From NCBI RefSeq assembly GCF_000025545.1, contig NC_013889.1, forward strand, positions 186,001-250,000: 64,000 nucleotides of DNA, written 5' to 3'. Shown here piece after piece: positions 42,850-49,745 of the stretch. The notes beneath the pieces are model-generated. The model saw nothing but the letters and a program-made list of their open reading frames with translations, was not told the origin of the DNA and did not search any database. A program made the translations under genes and the position numbers. Origin of the DNA: Thioalkalivibrio sp. K90mix (GTDB lineage Bacteria; Pseudomonadota; Gammaproteobacteria; Ectothiorhodospirales; Ectothiorhodospiraceae). Numbering within the stretch: position 1 is the stretch's first letter; every line of letters starts with the position of its first letter.

Positions 42850-43731
42850 ATGACGGCTGAGGCGGCAACACGCAACGTTCAGGCAATGGAACAGGCGGAT
42901 CTGCTGGATCTCCAGCAGCGAGCGGCGCGCAAGGTGCGGCTGGATGTCACGTTTCGTGACGAGGCGCGTTCGGGGGCGGTGACGCCCGAGTTGCAGGTGA
43001 TTCCGGCGGGTGAGGGCGAGATCGGTTCGGATGCCTCGGAGTACGGGCATCAGGAACACGAGTCGCCGCGGCGTTATGTGGTGCTGGAGAGGCCCTTTGC
43101 GCTGGGCCGCTTCGCGGTCACGCGCGAGGAGTGGGACGCCTTCGCCGAGGCGACGGGCTGGGAGCCCTGGGACTGGCTGGTATGGCCGCGGACACCGCGC
43201 ACGCCGATCTTTAACATCAAGCCGGCCAGCATCCAGCAGTATCTCGAATGGCTGAGCGAGGAGACCGGCAAGCGCTATCGCCTGCCCACGGAAGCCGAGT
43301 GGGAATACGCCTGCCGGGCCGGTACGCGTACGCCTTTTGCCTTCGGCGAGGTGGTGGGCTGCCGCGATGTGCACTTCAACTCCCTGTTCCCCTACGAGGA
43401 GCGCCGCCAGCGCCGCAAGTGGTACCTGCCCGCCTGTTTCCCGCTGTCCCGCCCGCTGGATGTTGGCAGCTTCCAGCCGAACCTGTGGGGCCTGTACGAC
43501 ATGCACGGCAACGTGCAGGAATTTACCTCCACCCCTTGGCATGATGACCATGCCAGCCTGCCGCGCGATGGCGTATACCGCCGCGATCCGGACAACGAGT
43601 GGGTCGTGGTCAAGGGCGGCTCCTGGTTCGACCCGGCAGTCGCCACCCGAAGCGCCGCCCGGCGTCGCCGCAACATCGACGAGATGGACACCAACCTCGG
43701 TTTCCGCGTCCTGCGGGAGCTGGATGATTAG
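42850..43731 (+). CDS. FGE/SUMF1-superfamily protein lacking the catalytic cysteines
   Basis: 293 residues of the formylglycine-generating-enzyme-like fold: RYVVLERPFALGRFAVTREEWDAF, RLPTEAEWEYACRAGT, NLWGLYDMHGNVQEF and VVKGGSWFDP. In true FGEs two Cys follow the GGSW motif; here the corresponding stretch (GGSWFDPAVATRSAARRRR) has none, so sulfatase activation is unlikely. The family also includes EgtB-like oxygenases, kinase fusions and carbohydrate-binding proteins. No sulfatase gene is nearby. It lies just upstream of an IS110. Confidence 0.85.
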   Translation: MTAEAATRNVQAMEQADLLDLQQRAARKVRLDVTFRDEARSGAVTPELQVIPAGEGEIGSDASEYGHQEHESPRRYVVLERPFALGRFAVTREEWDAFAEATGWEPWDWLVWPRTPRTPIFNIKPASIQQYLEWLSEETGKRYRLPTEAEWEYACRAGTRTPFAFGEVVGCRDVHFNSLFPYEERRQRRKWYLPACFPLSRPLDVGSFQPNLWGLYDMHGNVQEFTSTPWHDDHASLPRDGVYRRDPDNEWVVVKGGSWFDPAVATRSAARRRRNIDEMDTNLGFRVLRELDD

Positions 43732-43799
43732 GCGTTTGGTTGCCTGAGCACGATGCGTTTCGCCTTGCTCAACGCATCCTTGTGTCTTGCGGTTCACGG

Positions 43800-43962
43800 A
43801 TCGCTACCATGGACCGCACCGGGCTCGGGGTAACCCGATCGCATCCTGAGGTCACGAACCTGTGCCGTAGATGGGCCCCCGAGTCCTTTTTCATCTCGAA
43901 GTTTGAACGGTATCCAAGCCCCCCGTAAGGGACGGGTGAGGCTGTACGGACAAGGCGAGAGG
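43800..43962 (+). ncRNA. Predicted bridge RNA of IS110 copy 1
   Basis: Guides can be read in the noncoding left end, in the order expected for IS110 bridge RNAs. CGCATCCT (43840-43847) equals the left target flank (43773-43780). CCGTAG (43865-43870) is complementary to right target CTACGG (44974-44979). ACGGTATC (43907-43914) equals the right end of the element (44967-44974). ACAAG (43950-43954) is complementary to the left end CTTGT (43779-43783). RNA limits are approximate. Confidence 0.75.
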
Positions 43963-43967
43963 ACGAG

Positions 43968-44960
43968 ATGGCCCATATCGGCATTGATGTCAGCAAGAAC
44001 AAGCTCGACTGCATGTGGGTCCGGGATCTGGAGGCGGGCAAGGTCAAGCCGAAGGTATTCCCGAACCGCCCGGACCAGTACCCGGAGTTGCTGCGCTGGC
44101 TGCAGCGCAACACGGGTGAAGCGCCCGAGACGCTTCAGGTGTATCTGGAAGCCACCGGCATCTATCACGAACCGCTGGCCTACTGGCTGCATGAGCAGGG
44201 GGTTCGGGTCCATGTGCTGAACCCGGCCCAAGTGCGCTTCCACGCCCAGGGCATGGGGGTGCGCAACAAGACCGACCGCAAGGACAGCATGATGCTGGCG
44301 CGTTACGGCATCGAGCGCGCGCCACGGCGCTGGCAGCCCGAGCCGCCCGAGGTGCGGGAGCTCAAGCGCCTGCTCAGCCGGCTGGAAGCCCTTGAGGAGG
44401 ACATCCGGCGCGAGGAGAATCGCCTGGAGAAGGCGCAGTTCAGCGAGGACACCCTCGCCCAGGCGTCGATCGACAACGTGCTGCAAGCCCTGCGCGAGGA
44501 ACACCGTCGGCTACAGCAGCAGATCGATGATCACTTCGACGCGCATGATCATCTCAAGCGGGATCGGGCCTTGCTGGAGAGCATCCCCGGCATCGGCCGG
44601 GTGTTGTCGGCGTCGATGGCCGCGACGTTGCGCAGCCGTGCGTTCACGAGTGCTCGGCAGGCGGCGGCGTTCCATGGGCTGGTACCGGTCCTGCAGGAGT
44701 CCGGGACCTCGGTCCAGCGACCCCCGCGGCTGGCGAAGGCCGGCTCGGGGCGGCTGCGCAAAACGCTCTACATGGCCGCTGTGGTGGCCACCCGCTACAA
44801 CCCGGACGTGCGGCGCCAGTACCACCGCCTCCTGAGGCGGGGCAAAGCCAAGATGGCCGCCATCGGGGCGGCCATGCGCAAGCTCCTGCACATCGCCTTC
44901 GGCGTCCTCAAGTCGCAAACCCCGTATCAACCCCGAAATGACACGCCTTGCACCTCATAG
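43968..44960 (+). CDS. IS110-family transposase (DEDD recombinase)
   Basis: 330 residues. The N-terminal RuvC-like DEDD domain shows AHIGIDVSKNKLDC, LEATGIYHEPL and NKTDRKDSMMLARYG; the C-terminal Tnp_20 domain shows SIPGIGRVLSASM and the region with the presumed catalytic Ser (AAFHGLVPVLQESGTSV). A coiled coil with EEDIRREENRLEKAQ links them. Intact, so probably active. The 5' leader holds a predicted guide RNA. Confidence 0.96.
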   Translation: MAHIGIDVSKNKLDCMWVRDLEAGKVKPKVFPNRPDQYPELLRWLQRNTGEAPETLQVYLEATGIYHEPLAYWLHEQGVRVHVLNPAQVRFHAQGMGVRNKTDRKDSMMLARYGIERAPRRWQPEPPEVRELKRLLSRLEALEEDIRREENRLEKAQFSEDTLAQASIDNVLQALREEHRRLQQQIDDHFDAHDHLKRDRALLESIPGIGRVLSASMAATLRSRAFTSARQAAAFHGLVPVLQESGTSVQRPPRLAKAGSGRLRKTLYMAAVVATRYNPDVRRQYHRLLRRGKAKMAAIGAAMRKLLHIAFGVLKSQTPYQPRNDTPCTS

Positions 44961-44993
44961 GGCAAGACGGTATCTACGGTTGGGTGGCGATGC

Positions 44994-45024
44994 GTAGGGT
45001 GCACTGAGCGCAGCGAACTGCACC
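44994..45024 (+). repeat. Short repeat R2 upstream of higBA
   Basis: About 31 bp, GTAGGGTGCACTGAGCGCAG through GAACTGCACC. A second copy in the same direction lies at 45707-45737, so the two bracket higBA. Confidence 0.75.
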
Positions 45025-45065
45025 ATTAGTTTGCTGCTTACCGTTAAGCGTTATATTCTGTTTCC

Positions 45066-45344
45066 ATGATCAGAAGCTTTCGGTGTAGGGAAACCCGGGC
45101 GCTGTTCGAAACGGGCAGGAGTCGGCGTTGGTCGAGCGTCCGAACAATCGTGGAGCGCAAGCTGATTCAGCTTCAAGCGGCGGAGACACTGCAGGATTTG
45201 CGTTCTCCGCCGGGGAACCGGCTGGAGGCCCTGTCTGGCGACCGCGAAGGGCAGCACAGCATCCGAATCAACGCCCAGTGGCGCATCTGTTTCCGGTGGA
45301 CGGACGAAGGTCCCGAGGATGTGGAGATCGTCGATTACCACTGA
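45066..45344 (+). CDS. higB: HigB-type toxin
   Basis: 92 residues of the HigB/RelE killer family: MIRSFRCRETRALFETG, LQAAETLQDLRSPPGNRLEAL and QHSIRINAQWRICFRW with the conserved Arg/Trp active region, ending VDYH. Ribosome-dependent mRNA interferase by family. Toxin precedes antitoxin, the HigBA order. The gap to higA is 24 nt with AAGGAG. Confidence 0.92.
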   Translation: MIRSFRCRETRALFETGRSRRWSSVRTIVERKLIQLQAAETLQDLRSPPGNRLEALSGDREGQHSIRINAQWRICFRWTDEGPEDVEIVDYH

Positions 45345-45368
45345 AGGGTTCCGGAAGGAGGTTAGACC

Positions 45369-45668
45369 ATGAGCACAAGCGGTATGCGACCCATCCATCC
45401 AGGTGAGGTCCTGCGCGAGGAGTTTCTTGCCCCGTTGGGTCTCAGTGTGAACGCGCTTGCTGGGGCATTGCATGTTCCGACGACGCGCATGAACGACATT
45501 GTGCGCGAGCGTCGTGGCATTTCGGCTGACACGGCCATGAGGTTGGCGCGTTATTTCGGCACTTCCGAGCGTTTCTGGCTGAACCTCCAGCTCGAGTATG
45601 AACTGAGGCAGGCGCAACTCGAACTTTCGGAACGCGTGCGTCGTGAAATTGAGCCGCGGGCGGCTTGA
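45369..45668 (+). CDS. higA: HigA-type antitoxin
   Basis: 99 residues with a helix-turn-helix XRE domain: IHPGEVLREEFLAPLGLSVN, TRMNDIVRERRGISADTAMRL, FGTSERFWLNLQLEYELR. Neutralises HigB and represses the operon. An AAGGAGG site precedes it. Confidence 0.94.
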   Translation: MSTSGMRPIHPGEVLREEFLAPLGLSVNALAGALHVPTTRMNDIVRERRGISADTAMRLARYFGTSERFWLNLQLEYELRQAQLELSERVRREIEPRAA

Positions 45669-45706
45669 GTGGCGGCCGCGAGGGCGTGGGTGGATATGAG
45701 GTCGGC

Positions 45707-45737
45707 GTGGGGCGCGCTGAGCGCAGCGAATTGCACC
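45707..45737 (+). repeat. Short repeat R2 downstream of higBA
   Basis: Same family and direction as the copy upstream of higB (GCTGAGCGCAGCGAATTGCACC), with more divergence at its left end. Confidence 0.65.
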
Positions 45738-45765
45738 GTCTCGACGTGAGACTGCTCAGTTTTCC

Positions 45766-46305
45766 CTACAGCCAGCGGGCGAGCCAGAGGCGCAGGCGCA
45801 ACTCCAGGGGCGGGGCGTAGCCCTGCTTGCGGAAGACGATCTCGCCGTCGGGGTTGATGATGAAGGTCGCGGGTACGCCGCGGACGTTGTATTGCGAAGC
45901 GAGTTCGCCCTGCGGGTCGTTGATCACGGCCAGTTCGCGCTCGCGTTCGTTCAGGTGCTCCAGCACCTCCTCCGGCGTGCCGGACTGCATGGAGACCGTG
46001 AGCACCGGGTGGCTCTGCGACAGGCGCACGATCTCGCCTTCCTCCAGGCGGCAGATCGGGCACCAGGTGGCCCAGAAGTGCAGCAGCATGGGCTCGTCCG
46101 CGTAGTCGGCGAGCGTTACTGGCGTGCCATCCAGCAGTTGTGCCTCGAATTCGGGTGCCGGGCCCTCGACCATGTCGCGCGCCATCCAGGCGCGTACGGC
46201 CAGGAAGATCAACAGCGCGATGCCGATCTGGACGCCCCAGCTCAGGGCGCGGCGGCGCCGGGAAGGCTTCGGGCGTTGCGGTTTTTCGGGGCGAGTCTCG
46301 GTCAA
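45766..46305 (-). CDS. TlpA-like membrane-anchored thioredoxin
   Basis: 179 residues: a basic cytoplasmic start, one membrane helix (about 22-40) and a periplasmic redoxin domain with active site WATWCPIC (C82, C85) and cis-Pro loop GVPATFII. Could reduce cytochrome c or copper-site cysteines, or act like ScsD. It overlaps the LRV-repeat gene start region by 4 bases, so they are cotranscribed. Confidence 0.85.
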
Positions 46306-46733
46306 CGGATCATCTCGGCTTGTCCGGGGCGGGCGCGGGTCCCGCGTTTTTTCGGGCCCTTGCGCACCGCAATGCGCACCAGTTCGTCTTCGTCATCCAT
46401 CAGTTGTTCCCGCTGCGCTTCGGTCAGAAGCGGATTGCGCGCGACGAAGTAGCGCAGGTTCGGGTCGCGGTCGTTCACGCAGGCCTCGACCTGTTCCGGT
46501 GTCAGGTCGGGGCGCTTGGCGCAGTTCAGGCGTACGGTCTGGTTGGGGTCGGCCAGCAGCAGGGCGACCTCCTCGGGCGTGAGGTCCATGCGGCGGGAAA
46601 AGTAGGCCTTCACCTGGGCGTGCTGGTCGCGGACCAGCAGGGGACGCCAGTGCACCTCGAGGTCCACGGACAGGGCGAGGTCCATGCGTTCCTCGAATGT
46701 CATTGCCTTGTATTGCTGTTTCAGGTCGGTCAT
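46302..46733 (-). CDS. LRV/HEAT-like repeat protein
   Basis: 143 residues with about three 23-25-residue repeats: [40 protein letters not shown] and [20 protein letters not shown], the leucine-rich-variant pattern of helical solenoids. No Fe-S cysteine cluster as in classic LRV proteins. The extreme C-terminus is basic. Function unknown; overlaps the TlpA-like gene, and is divergent from nadA. Confidence 0.75.
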
Positions 46734-46868
46734 GGCCGGGGCATTATAGGCGCCCGGGTTGGGATGCGCGGGCACGCCCCCACAATGTGTAGGAACGACA
46801 GCGCCTTGGGGCCTGTCGTACTATTAGCTAACGATAATTTGCCCCGCATGCCGGGATGTCGAGGACCC

Positions 46869-47951
46869 ATGACCGCACCGGTGGCCGAAATTCCGATCTT
46901 CCAAGTGCCGCGCACGGATCACGTGACGGCTTCGCTGCATGCGTTGACCGATGCCCAGCGCGACGAACTGGTGCGCCGGATCAAGCGCCTGCTGATCGAG
47001 CGCAACGCGGTGCTGGTGGCCCATTACTACGTGGACGAGTCGCTGCAGCGGCTGGCGGACGAGACCGGCGGCTGCGTAGCCGACTCCCTGGAGATGGCGC
47101 GCTTCGGCAAGGAGCATCCGGCCGAGACGCTGGTGGTCGCCGGGGTGCGCTTCATGGGCGAGACGGCCAAGATCCTGAGCCCGGAGAAGCGCGTGCTGAT
47201 GCCGACGCTGGAGGCCGAATGTTCGCTGGATCTTGGCTGCCCGGCGGACGAGTTCGCGAAGTTCCGCGCCCAGTATCCGGACCACACAGTGGTCGTGTAC
47301 TCCAACACCTCGGTAGACGTGAAGGCGCAGGCCGATTACGTCGTCACCTCCAGCATTGCCGTGCCGCTGGTCGAGCACCTGCGCGATCAGGGCAAGAAGG
47401 TCCTGTGGGCCCCGGACAAGCACCTGGGCGACTACATCCGCCGCACCACCGGTGCCGACATGGTGCTGTGGGACGGCTCCTGCGTGGTGCACGACGAGTT
47501 CCGCGCGTGGGCACTAGAGGATCTGCGTGGTCGCCACCCCGGCGCGGCGGTGCTGGTGCACCCGGAGTCCCCGCGCGAGGTGATCCACCAGGCCGATGTG
47601 GTCGGTTCCACCAGCCAGCTGATCGCGGCCGTGAAGGATCGCCCGGAGCAGGAATTCATCGTTGCAACCGACAAGGGCATCTTCTACAAGATGCAGCAGG
47701 CCGCGCCGGACAAGACGCTGATCGAGGCCCCGACCGGCGGCCACAGCGCCACCTGTACCAGCTGCGCCCACTGCCCGTGGATGGCGATGAACGACCTGGT
47801 CTCGCTGGCCGAGACCCTGGAAGACACCGCGGAGCCGGCGAAGAACGAGATCTTCGTCGACGAGACCGCGCGCCAGAAGGCCCTGGTGGCCACCCAGCGC
47901 ATGCTCGACTTCGCCGCCGAACACCGCAAGGCCACCGCCGGCGATGCCTGA
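46869..47951 (+). CDS. nadA: Quinolinate synthase
   Basis: Condenses iminoaspartate with dihydroxyacetone phosphate to quinolinate in NAD synthesis, using a 4Fe-4S cluster. The 360 residues show [26 protein letters not shown], the cluster Cys in [23 protein letters not shown] and [10 protein letters not shown], and [21 protein letters not shown]. The ATG follows GAGGA. The stop is only about 15 nt from the IS110 copy 2 border, so the original 3' untranslated region (a REP-like palindrome) is disrupted. Confidence 0.96.
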
Positions 47952-47981
47952 CACGACGCCCCCGGTAGATACCGTCTTGCC

Positions 47982-48974
47982 CTACGGGGTGCAAGGGGTT
48001 TCATGGCGGGCTTGATACGGGGTTTGGGATTTGAGCACACCGAAGGCGATGTGCAGGAGTTTGCGCATAGCCGCCCCGATCGCCGACATCTTGGCCTTGC
48101 CGCGTGTCAGCAGACGTTGATGCTGGTGTCGCACGTCCGGGTTGTACCGGGTCGCCACCACCGCCGCCATGTAGAGCGCCTTGCGCAGTCGGCTGGAACC
48201 GATCTTCGCCAACCGCGAGGGCCGCCGGACCGTGGTCCCCGATTCTTCCAGGACCGGTGCCAGCCCATGGAACGCCGCCGCTTGTCGAGCGCTCGTGAAC
48301 GCGCGGCTGCGCAGCGCTGCGGTCATCGAGGCCGACAGCACGCGGCCGATGCCGGGGATGCTCTCCAGCAAGGTCCGATCCCGCTTCAGGTGGTGATGGG
48401 CGTCGAAGTGATCGTCGATCTGCTGCTGGAGCCGACGGTGTTCCTCACGCAGGGCCTGCAGGACGTTGTCGATCGACGCCTGAGCGAGGGTGTCCTCACT
48501 GAAACGCGCCTTCTCCAGGCGGTTCTCTTCGCGCCGCATATCCTGTTCCAGAGCCTCCAGGCGGCTGAGCAGGCGCTTGAGTTCCCGCACCTCCGGCGGT
48601 TCGGGCTGCCAGCGTCGTGGTGCGCGTTCGATGCCGTAGCGGGCCAGCATCATGCTGTCCTTGCGGTCGGTCTTGTTGCGCACCCCCATGCCCTTGGCAT
48701 GCGAACGCACCTGGGCCGGGTTCAGCACGTGGACCTGCACCCCCTGATCATGAAGCCAGTACGCCAGCGGCTCGTGGTAGATGCCGGTGGCCTCCAGATA
48801 CACATGGAGCCCCTCGGGGGTCTCGCCGGTGTTGCGCTCGAGCCAGTGCAGCAGCTCCCGGTACTGGTCTTGGCGGTTCGGGAACACCTTGGGCTTCACC
48901 TTGCCCGCCTCCAGATCCCGGACCCACATGCAGTCGAGCTTGTTCTTGCTAACATCAACGCCAATATGAGCCAT
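47982..48974 (-). CDS. IS110-family transposase, copy 2
   Basis: 330 residues, close to identical to copy 1 apart from scattered substitutions (for example QDQYRELLHWLERNTGETPEG), with the same DEDD residues (HIGVDVSKNKLDC, LEATGIYHEPL, KTDRKDSMMLARYG) and Ser domain (FHGLAPVLEESGTTV). Intact. Divergence between the copies suggests separate arrivals rather than a fresh local transposition. Confidence 0.96.
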   Translation of the reverse strand: MAHIGVDVSKNKLDCMWVRDLEAGKVKPKVFPNRQDQYRELLHWLERNTGETPEGLHVYLEATGIYHEPLAYWLHDQGVQVHVLNPAQVRSHAKGMGVRNKTDRKDSMMLARYGIERAPRRWQPEPPEVRELKRLLSRLEALEQDMRREENRLEKARFSEDTLAQASIDNVLQALREEHRRLQQQIDDHFDAHHHLKRDRTLLESIPGIGRVLSASMTAALRSRAFTSARQAAAFHGLAPVLEESGTTVRRPSRLAKIGSSRLRKALYMAAVVATRYNPDVRHQHQRLLTRGKAKMSAIGAAMRKLLHIAFGVLKSQTPYQARHETPCTP

Positions 48975-48979
48975 CTCGT

Positions 48980-49145
48980 CCTCTCGCCTTGTCCGTACAG
49001 CCTCACCCGTCCGTCACGGAGGGGGGTCTTGGATACCGTTCAAACTTCGAGATGAGAAAGGACTCGGGGGCCAATCTACAGAACAGGTTCGTGACCTCAG
49101 GAGCCTGACGGGTTACCCGAGCCCAATACGGTTCATGGTAGCGAT
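48980..49145 (-). ncRNA. Predicted bridge RNA of IS110 copy 2
   Basis: Read on the minus strand: CAGGCTCCT (49099-49107) equals its own left target flank (49165-49173). CTGTAG (49076-49081) is complementary to five of six bases of right flank CTACCG (47963-47968). ACGGTATC (49032-49039) equals the element's end (47968-47975). ACAAG (48988-48992) is complementary to the other end. The first two segments differ from copy 1 while the last two are the same, as expected for target versus donor guides. Confidence 0.75.
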
Positions 49146-49164
49146 CCGTGAACCGCAAGACACA

Positions 49165-49240
49165 AGGAGCCTGCTTGCAGGCGAAGCTCCCGCCAGAGTC
49201 GGACGCGGGCAAGGGCATTCGCCTGCAAGCAGGCTCCTAC
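49165..49240. repeat. REP-like inverted repeat split by IS110 copy 2
   Basis: AGGAGCCTGCTTGCAGGCGAA on the left pairs perfectly with TTCGCCTGCAAGCAGGCTCC on the right, across a 32-nt loop. It resembles the GTAGGAGC...GCTCCTAC REP family of Pseudomonas. Its first bases now lie beyond the IS at 47964-47968. Confidence 0.85.
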
Positions 49241-49254
49241 GGTGCGGCGTTCGG

Positions 49255-49461
49255 CTAGCGGTCGTTCAGCCAGGCGGCCCACTGGGAGTGGGTGGAGACG
49301 TCCACGCCGTCGGCCTTGGCGGCCTTTTGCAGGTGGGTCTGCAGGTCGGCCATCAGTTCGGAATCCATCAGCTCGGGCTCCAGGGTGAGCTGCGCGTGCA
49401 GCGTGCTGTAGACGAGCTTCAGTTCATTTGTCGGATAATGCGACCAGTCGAGGTGGGCCAT
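49255..49461 (-). CDS. Small uncharacterised protein
   Basis: 68 residues, MAHLDWSHYPTNELKLVYSTLHAQL..., predicted helical and acidic, ending in SQWAAWLNDR. No motif recognised. A GGAG lies about 10 nt upstream of the ATG, and codon use is normal for this genome, which argues for a real gene. It lies between a REP-like repeat and a MITE-like element. Confidence 0.6.
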   Translation of the reverse strand: MAHLDWSHYPTNELKLVYSTLHAQLTLEPELMDSELMADLQTHLQKAAKADGVDVSTHSQWAAWLNDR

Positions 49462-49534: not shown

Positions 49535-49745
49535 CCAGGGGAGCACTGATTAATGTACACACTCGCGTTGGCACCCCAGGTTTTCCGAGACAAGGCGCGG
49601 TGCGCAGCCGGTAGTGGTTCTACCGGCAAGGGCCGCAACGCAGGATCGGAGAACCTGGGGTGCCAACCCCGAAGGGGCTCGGCCGCTTTTGCGCGCGCAA
49701 AAGCGACTCGAGCGCGAGCGTGTACATGGATCAGTGTTCCCCTGG
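49535..49745. mobile_element. MITE-like element with nested inverted repeats
   Basis: 211 bp with no coding capacity. Outer ends of about 33 bp are inverted repeats with 29 matches (CCAGGGGAGCACTGATTA on the left). A second pair inside (TTGGCACCCCAGGTTTTCCG at 49568, complement at 49646) matches 20 of 21. The centre is a hairpin (CCGGTAG-TGGTT-CTACCGG). A perfect 20-bp palindrome GCTTTTGCGCGCGCAAAAGC is at 49685-49704. The whole unit could fold into one long stem. No transposase with such ends is in the window. Confidence 0.8.

What the first reader, a model, noticed from the sequence alone, without database searches (positions are those of the whole stretch)
43773..49173. Bridge-RNA guides of two IS110 copies can be read against their own insertion sites
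In the left noncoding end of copy 1, CGCATCCT equals its left flank and CCGTAG is complementary to its right flank CTACGG. In copy 2 the same positions read CAGGCTCCT, equal to its own left flank over 9 nt, and CTGTAG, complementary to 5 of 6 bases of its right flank. The two elements are otherwise alike there, so the differences track the targets. Segments constant in both copies (ACGGTATC, ACAAG) match the element's own two ends, as donor guides should. CT is at all four junctions. Bridge RNAs are known for IS621 and relatives; this appears to be a separate lineage with paired evidence inside one window.
Basis: partly seen in the sequence, partly recalled or inferred. Interest (0 to 1): 0.9.

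Follow-up and report, generated by a model that had tools for sequence, protein, structure and literature searches.

The report
RNA-guided jumping genes targeting genomic repeats
Two related bacterial jumping genes each carry a predicted guide-RNA stretch that spells out the site each one jumped into; this is a recently discovered kind of RNA-guided element, seen here retargeted to different repeats within one genome.

Summary
Both elements (43779-44975 +; 47967-49166 -) are IS110-group insertion sequences of IS621-like design, in a genome that is very likely Thioalkalivibrio. The genome has nine copies with three guide types, each at its own palindromic-looking repeat. Across 35 insertions with 18 distinct left guides, guide and own flank agree at 6.56 of 8 positions, against 3.37 with permuted flanks (0 of 100,000). 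A blind scan of 5,059 cells ranks the six left-guide cells first to sixth. The right guide tracks its target at position 4, weakly at 5-7. Donor guides track the element's own ends. Target-loop stems covary. Relatives hold uninterrupted sites with one CT. Catalytic residues align with IS621. This is the published bridge-RNA mechanism, so it is a new member of a known kind. What it adds is natural retargeting among copies in one genome, and guides that vary faster than the rest of the left end in most groups compared. Transcription and activity were not tested.

The parts
43779..44975 (+). IS110-group element, copy 1 (guide type 1), counted from left core CT to right core CT; 1197 nt
   Evidence: uninterrupted orthologous sites with a single CT in 8 relatives
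43779..43780 (+). left core CT of copy 1
44974..44975 (+). right core CT of copy 1
43839..43847 (+). left target guide of copy 1, TCGCATCCT (own flank ACGCATCCT, 8 of 9)
43863..43870 (+). right target guide region of copy 1, TGCCGTAG (pairs with CTACGG of the right flank)
43871..43872 (+). AT after the right target guide, the place of the IS621 target-loop handshake guide (invariant in 21 of 21 aligned elements)
   Evidence: handshake guides as described in PMC11208158 section 11 and passages
43907..43915 (+). left donor guide of copy 1, ACGGTATCC (element right end ACGGTATCT)
43946..43954 (+). right donor guide of copy 1, AC-GG-ACAAG (pairs discontiguously with CTTGTGT of the left end)
43788..43956 (+). 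predicted bridge RNA of copy 1 (start inferred from the 5' stem-loop; both ends approximate)
43968..44960 (+). DEDD recombinase of copy 1, 330 aa
47967..49166 (-). IS110-group element, copy 2 (guide type 2), from right core CT to left core CT; 1200 nt
   Evidence: uninterrupted repeat at the orthologous site in 6 relatives
49099..49107 (-). left target guide of copy 2, CAGGCTCCT (equals its left flank, 9 of 9)
49076..49083 (-). right target guide region of copy 2, TTCTGTAG
49031..49039 (-). left donor guide of copy 2, ACGGTATCC
48988..48996 (-). right donor guide of copy 2, AC-GG-ACAAG
47982..48974 (-). DEDD recombinase of copy 2, 330 aa, 89% identical to that of copy 1
49167..49240 (+). palindromic-looking REP-like repeat that copy 2 is inserted in; an intact GCAGGCTCCTAC end lies at its far side (49229-49240)
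   Evidence: palindrome judged by eye

Best explanation
These are autonomous IS110-group insertion sequences that choose their insertion site with a bridge RNA from their left non-coding end. The RNA has a 5' stem-loop, a target-binding loop and a donor-binding loop. In the target loop, a 9-nt left guide (six variable bases, a nearly constant C, core CT) reads the bottom strand left of the site. A right guide (core CT plus up to about 5 nt) reads the top strand right of it. In the donor loop, ACGGTATC and AC-NN-ACAAG read the element's own two ends in the excised circle. The recombinase (RuvC-like DEDD plus a Tnp domain with a serine) then exchanges strands at CT. In this genome three guide variants of the element sit at three different palindromic-looking repeats ending in TCCTAC, with the donor guides unchanged. 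Shown here: anatomy, guide-target and donor covariation, RNA stem covariation, empty sites, conserved catalytic residues. Inferred from IS621: transcription from the circle, the RNA-protein complex and catalysis.
For: Nine copies and three guide types in one genome. Left guide: 6.56 of 8 own against 3.37 permuted, 0 of 100,000; top six of 5,059 cells in a blind scan. Right guide: positions 3-7 own 3.11 of 5 against 2.12, sd 0.19, 0 of 20,000 (31 insertions, 20 distinct guides, L070 and L102 added by hand). Without those two, positions 4-7 own 2.13 of 4 against 1.52, p 0.00025. Top cell of the blind right-flank scan is the guide column pairing with position 4. Right donor guide: left end with G at position 6 goes with AC in 16 of 16, A with AU in 6 of 7; left donor guide ACGG/ATGG follows the right end in 20 of 20 with a known right end. 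RNA: covariation score 0.576 against 0.221 shuffled; two pairs closing the target loop are standard in 21 of 21 with 7 and 8 double changes. Protein families; IS621 D11, E60, D102, D105 and S241 all matched. Uninterrupted sites with one CT: 8 relatives for copy 1, 6 for copy 2. Unoccupied target sequences in the genome: 19 GCAGGCTCCTAC against 1 control, 17 CGCATCCTAC against 4.
Against: Poor guide-flank agreement in some insertions: L087 0 of 8, L094 2 of 8, L033 4 of 8. L033, L066 and L087 fail the blind 7-base scan. Right guide: all eight positions together reach only p 0.026 and positions 5-8 p 0.19; the position-3 signal comes from the two hand-added relatives. In the blind right-flank scan cells outside the guide come close (z 4.42 and 3.94 against 4.53). 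Four of 20 left donor guides carry 1-2 mismatches to the element end (L033, L066, L067, L069), and right ends were found by a pattern that fixes GGTATCT, so only one base of that guide was free to vary. Single-sequence folding is unremarkable (z -1.30 and -0.42); RNAalifold did not recover a donor-loop stem; no Rfam match above threshold. One of the three closing pairs drawn (60-106) is unpaired in 14 of 21. Relatives are not independent, so permutation counts overstate certainty. No RNA or activity data exist here.
Confidence: 0.95

Rival explanations
1. The match is a by-product of insertion: the left end captured a piece of flank (or the target already resembled the element), and the protein alone picks the site.
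For: Target repeats and guides share a constant CCT; copies at one repeat family share both guide and flank.
Against: The match lies about 60 nt inside the element, in the loop of a covarying stem, best or tied best there in 18 of 21 diverse elements. The right guide also tracks its target, more weakly, and the donor guides track the ends. Proteins 85-91% identical sit at different targets.
Confidence: 0.03
2. A shared-ancestry artefact: a few clades each fixed one guide and one target, so the covariation is inflated.
For: Several insertions share a guide (collapses 35 insertions to 18 guides); clades were not modelled on a tree; chance cells of the blind left scan reach z 4.10.
Against: Single-base tracking between close relatives: ACAGAGCCT in guide and flank of L090, ACAAAGCCT in both for L088 and L095. 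Three guide types with matching flanks in one genome. The six left-guide cells, z 4.66 to 6.01, lie on one diagonal and rank above every other cell.
Confidence: 0.02

Closest known systems
IS621 (Escherichia coli, IS110 group) and its bridge RNA; PMC11208160 (outline with abstract, sections 7 and 12, and passages seen) and PMC11208158 (section 11 and passages seen)
   Same: DEDD RuvC-like plus Tnp serine recombinase, bridge RNA in the left end, CT core, 8-9 nt left guides, short right target guide, right donor guide pairing 9 RNA nt with 7 DNA nt discontiguously, AU handshake guide, insertion in palindromic repeats.
   Different: Distinct branch (phmmer E 1.5e-56 and 3.2e-59 for the two copies). 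Other target repeats; three guide types within one genome.
ISCro4 recombinase (PDB 9t56)
   Same: With IS621, one of the only two solved sequences matched.
   Different: Only its protein sequence was compared; its RNA was not examined here.
ISPpu9, ISPpu10, ISPa11 (IS110 family at REP sequences; PMC1525189, passages seen)
   Same: Copies sit at one point of a palindromic repeat.
   Different: In the passages seen each is described at one repeat type in its genome; sequences not compared here.
seekRNA elements (ISEc11, ISXne4, ISEc21 and others; PMC11187229, passages seen)
   Same: RNA-guided target choice; natural redirection between relatives reported (ISEc11 and ISXne4, transposases 72% identical).
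   Different: That natural example is of the IS1111 group, with the non-coding region downstream; here redirection is between copies 85-91% identical in one genome.

Membership tests
IS110 group, bridge-RNA insertion sequences (IS621-like) | DEDD RuvC-like domain plus Tnp domain with conserved serine | tested here: met
   PF01548 and PF02371 above cut-off; NF033542 212 and 208 bits, cut-off 140; D7, E61, D103, D106, S245 align with IS621 D11, E60, D102, D105, S241 (residues, alignment)
IS110 group, bridge-RNA insertion sequences (IS621-like) | Long non-coding left end, short right end | tested here: met
   Copy 1: 189 nt before the gene and 15 nt after it, core included
IS110 group, bridge-RNA insertion sequences (IS621-like) | CT core at both junctions, single in the empty site | tested here: met
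IS110 group, bridge-RNA insertion sequences (IS621-like) | Left target guide covaries with the left target | tested here: met
IS110 group, bridge-RNA insertion sequences (IS621-like) | Right target guide covaries with the right target | tested here: met
   Position 4 clearly, 5-7 weakly, 8 not; position 3 only through two hand-added relatives
IS110 group, bridge-RNA insertion sequences (IS621-like) | Donor-binding loop guides match the element ends, right donor guide discontiguous | tested here: met
   AC with G 16 of 16, AU with A 6 of 7; ACGG/ATGG 20 of 20
IS110 group, bridge-RNA insertion sequences (IS621-like) | 5' stem-loop and target-loop stem conserved with compensatory changes | tested here: met
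   16 of 20 pairs with double changes (shuffled mean 12.9, 5 of 500 as high); score 0.576 against 0.221 (0 of 500)
IS110 group, bridge-RNA insertion sequences (IS621-like) | Donor-loop stem | tested here: inconclusive
   Not recovered by RNAalifold on A3
IS110 group, bridge-RNA insertion sequences (IS621-like) | Promoter formed across the joined right and left ends | tested here: inconclusive
   TTGNNN 17-18 nt before a TATCTT in 19 of 19 joined ends, but TATCT was part of how right ends were found, most -35 matches are 3-4 of 6, and the integrated junction scores as high or higher in 4 of 19 (L001, L005, L027, L090)
IS110 group, bridge-RNA insertion sequences (IS621-like) | RNA is transcribed, binds the recombinase and directs recombination | not testable with these tools
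   needs RNA sequencing and recombination assays
IS1111 group | Bridge RNA in a long right end | tested here: not met
   Right end 15 nt; guides lie in the left end
IS1111 group | Long subterminal inverted repeats | not tested
   no search for subterminal inverted repeats was run

The most novel reading that the evidence does not exclude
The target loop of this lineage is rewritten faster than mutation and selection on the rest of the RNA would allow, by some active process (for example, copying target sequence into the guide during imprecise insertion, or conversion between copies), so the element can hop from one family of palindromic repeats to the next. In five Halomonas-group elements the variable left-guide columns differ in 27% of comparisons and the distal right-guide columns in 42%, against 2% for the rest of the left end.
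Probability: 0.06. Interest if true: 0.8.

Novelty: new member of a known kind. Interest (0 to 1): 0.42.

Why it matters
Bridge RNAs are a recently found class of programmable DNA-recombination guide. This family shows natural reprogramming unusually clearly: copies 85-91% identical in protein, with the same donor guides, sit in one genome at three different repeats that match three different guides. That gives paired natural variants for testing which guide bases matter. Two distant relatives, in which a handshake base and a target or donor base differ together, are suggestive further support for the published handshake-guide model.

Tried and rejected
Rfam search of 43600-49400: one sub-threshold match (snoTBR17, 18.5 bits, gathering 40, E 0.56), rejected as chance. 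Single-sequence folding: z -1.30 and -0.42, not evidence by itself. The first two automatic extractions missed many elements and were replaced plus reading others by eye. Allowing G-U pairs for the right guide did not strengthen it. Plasmid search: 1,107 records, all below 60% identity, not used further. A search of the whole order returned the same 47 genomes as the family. A covariance model was not built, because pair counting and blind covariation already answered the question.

Rows left out of the counts. One search gave 28 rows after dropping those with short left flanks (such as L023, L024). Eight were added by hand (L007, L025, L031, L064, L069, L071, L101, L093) and L093 was dropped (register unclear, N in its flank), giving 35. 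Insertions with the same 24-nt left flank and left end had been collapsed. L070 and L102 were read by hand and enter only. L065, L068, L089 and L092 gave no left end by pattern. L096 and L098-L100 were not matched and not examined further. Fragments such as L040, L041, L079, L081, L082 and L084 were not used. Of 24 loci fetched for the copy-2 site, 16 were examined (L103-L118).
Full report
What is there. The window holds two complete IS110-group insertion sequences: copy 1 at 43779-44975 (+) and copy 2 at 47967-49166 (-), counted from core CT to core CT. Each encodes a 330-aa transposase; the two are 89% identical. Both have PF01548 and PF02371 and match NCBIfam NF033542 'IS110 family RNA-guided transposase' at 212 and 208 bits, cut-off 140. 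The only solved sequences matched are IS621 and ISCro4, aligned over residues 3-327. The IS621 catalytic residues named in PMC11208158 (passages) are all present at aligned positions.

Where it is. The window is G000:C1:186001-250000. Relatives of the element in named genomes are Thioalkalivibrio, an Ectothiorhodospiraceae MAG, and Halomonas/Vreelandella. One same-genus genome (G018) has the element at the same contig coordinates as Thioalkalivibrio sp. ALJ3, so the host is very likely Thioalkalivibrio (inference).

Nine copies, three guide types. The genome has nine copies (first nine rows): two of type 1 (guide TCGCATCCT), six of type 2 (CAGGCTCCT) and one of type 3 (TGGCCTCCT). Each type sits at its own palindromic-looking repeat (judged by eye), whose joined site would read ...CGCATCCTAC...CAGGCTCCTAC (one of the six has CAGACTCCTAC) and ...TGGCCTCCTAC. 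The type 2 target GCAGGCTCCTAC occurs unoccupied 19 times in the genome against 1 for the reversed control, and CGCATCCTAC 17 times against 4. The type 3 target was not counted.

Empty sites. For copy 1, loci of 22 same-genus relatives were examined. Eight have the uninterrupted sequence with a single CT: L128, L129, L130, L135 and L136 with CGCATCCTACGG; L133, L137 and L138 with AGCATCCT followed by ACGG, ACGC and GCGG. One (L131) is occupied by a related type 1 element. The other 13 have other sequence there or were not resolved. For copy 2, 15 relatives were examined (8 more fetched loci were not): the repeat is uninterrupted in six (L104, L105, L107, L108, L112, and L116 with one base missing), and nine have other sequence or were not resolved.

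Left target guide. In one search, positions are counted back from the junction with core CT as -2 and -1. From 35 insertions with 18 distinct left guides, the guide agrees with its own flank at 6.56 of the 8 non-core positions. The permuted mean is 3.37 (sd 0.39), and 0 of 100,000 permutations reach the observed value. By position, own agreement is 0.81-0.90 from -9 to -4 against 0.22-0.39 for other flanks. Position -3 is C almost everywhere, and -10 (0.39 against 0.26) lies outside the guide. A blind scan over all alignment columns, both senses and 20 flank positions (21 elements, 5,059 testable cells) ranks the six cells of this diagonal first to sixth (z 4.66 to 6.01; the next cell is 4.10). 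Close relatives track single bases: ACAGAGCCT in guide and flank of L090, ACAAAGCCT in both for L088 and L095. Against: L087 (0 of 8), L094 (2 of 8) and L033 (4 of 8) fit poorly. L094 appears to be inserted in the transposase gene of another copy of its own kind (sequence), perhaps an off-target event.

Right target guide. In one search (29 insertions, 18 distinct right guides) position 4 tracks the target (own 0.94, other 0.69), position 3 does not (0.89, 0.90), and 5-7 are slightly raised (about 0.4 against 0.25-0.30). Positions 4-7 together give p 0.00025, all eight p 0.026, and 5-8 p 0.19. With L070 and L102 added by hand (31 insertions, 20 guides), positions 3-7 pair at 3.11 of 5 against 2.12 (sd 0.19; 0 of 20,000), because in those two relatives positions 3 and 4 differ in guide and target together; position 8 shows nothing. 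In the blind right-flank scan (18 elements) the top cell is the guide column that pairs with position 4 (z 4.53), but cells outside the guide come close (4.42 and 3.94).

Donor guides. The right donor guide has the discontiguous form described for IS621 (PMC11208160 section 7): AC or AU, two unpaired bases, then ACAAG. Of 23 elements, those whose left end reads CTTGTG carry AC in 16 of 16 and those with CTTGTA carry AU in 6 of 7 (exception L070). The left donor guide follows ACGG or ATGG of the right end in 20 of 20 elements with a known right end, with 1-2 other mismatches in four. Right ends were found with a pattern fixing GGTATCT, so only that C/T position was informative. In L102, whose right end was found separately, end ACGGTTACT and guide ACGGTTACC differ from the rest together. 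These changes may be few events, because relatives share them.

Handshake guides. PMC11208158 section 11 describes bases next to each right guide that pair with the other DNA after strand exchange. Here the target-loop pair AT is invariant in 21 of 21 and would pair with the donor AT before the core. The donor-loop base is G in 21 of 21, matching the C before the target core in 34 of 35 insertions (exception L087). In two distant relatives they differ together: L070 has A with target T; L102 has C with target G, and T with donor A. This is a hand reading of two elements, not a test.

RNA structure. On 21 aligned left ends, a structure with a 5' stem-loop, the target-loop outer and closing stems and its apical hairpin has 81.6% of cells paired (60.9% shuffled), 98 double-change cells (39.2 shuffled) and covariation score 0.576 (0.221 shuffled), each reached by 0 of 500 shuffles. 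Pairs with double changes are 16 (12.9 shuffled, 5 of 500), and further pair types 45 (40.5 shuffled, 31 of 500, not striking). Sliding the 3' side by one column lowers the score to 0.204 or 0.392. Pairs 61-105 and 62-104 are standard in 21 of 21; 60-106 is unpaired in 14 and 82-88 in 11. I drew the structure after seeing RNAalifold and the alignment, so these controls lean in its favour. A donor-loop stem was not recovered. Joined ends show TTGNNN 17-18 nt upstream of a TATCTT in 19 of 19, in keeping with the circle promoter of IS621, but the integrated junction scores as high or higher in 4 of 19 and no shuffle control was run.

Guide variability. Within five Halomonas-group left ends, the variable left-guide columns differ in 16 of 60 comparisons and the distal right-guide columns in 21 of 50, against 35 of 1,616 elsewhere. 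In four Thioalkalivibrio ones the figures are 22 of 36, 15 of 30 and 123 of 955. In the three of a second Halomonas-family group the left guide is not clearly raised (2 of 18 against 25 of 487), while the right guide is (8 of 15). Relaxed constraint plus selection for new targets explains this without a special mechanism.

Known or new. RNA guidance of IS110 elements and covariation of guides with targets and ends (PMC11208160 sections 7 and 12), insertion in REP sequences (PMC1525189, passages) and natural redirection between relatives (PMC11187229, passages) are published. I found no paper on IS110 guides in Thioalkalivibrio: 'Thioalkalivibrio' with 'IS110' returned five papers, seen as a listing only. 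The listings (65 lists 15 of 17 papers) showed no title or abstract start that reports several guide types of one IS110 element in one genome; this is not proof of absence. Verdict: a well-supported new member of a known kind, with an unusually clear natural retargeting series.

Noticed in passing
L070 and L102 (left and right ends): In two distant relatives the handshake base of the donor loop and the target base before the core differ from the rest together (A with T; C with G), and in L102 the target-loop handshake base and the donor base too (T with A).
   Followed up: partly
L088, L090, L095 left flanks (L091 differs slightly): A second Halomonas-family group inserts at a common sequence TCGGACA[AG]AGCCT (preceded by TTT in L090 and L095) that does not look like a palindromic repeat and may be the end of another mobile element; its identity was not checked.
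   Followed up: no
L094: A copy appears nested in the start of the transposase gene of another copy of the same element, at a site that fits its guide poorly (2 of 8).
   Followed up: no
window 45066-45668: A HigB-like toxin gene (PF05015) and a helix-turn-helix gene that looks like its antitoxin (PF01381) lie directly downstream of copy 1.
   Followed up: partly
window 49567-49667: Inverted repeat with 22-nt arms, 95% complementary, 57 nt apart.
   Followed up: no
L131 (G039) against window 43779: The orthologous copy 1 site in another genome is also occupied by a type 1 element of a slightly different variant, so the same site may have been hit twice.
   Followed up: no
window 44992-45024 and 45705-45737, and L010, L011, L013: A short repeat (GTAGGGTGCACTGAGCGCAGCGAACTGCACC-like) recurs in the genome (last four rows) and lies beside the type 1 target.
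   Followed up: no
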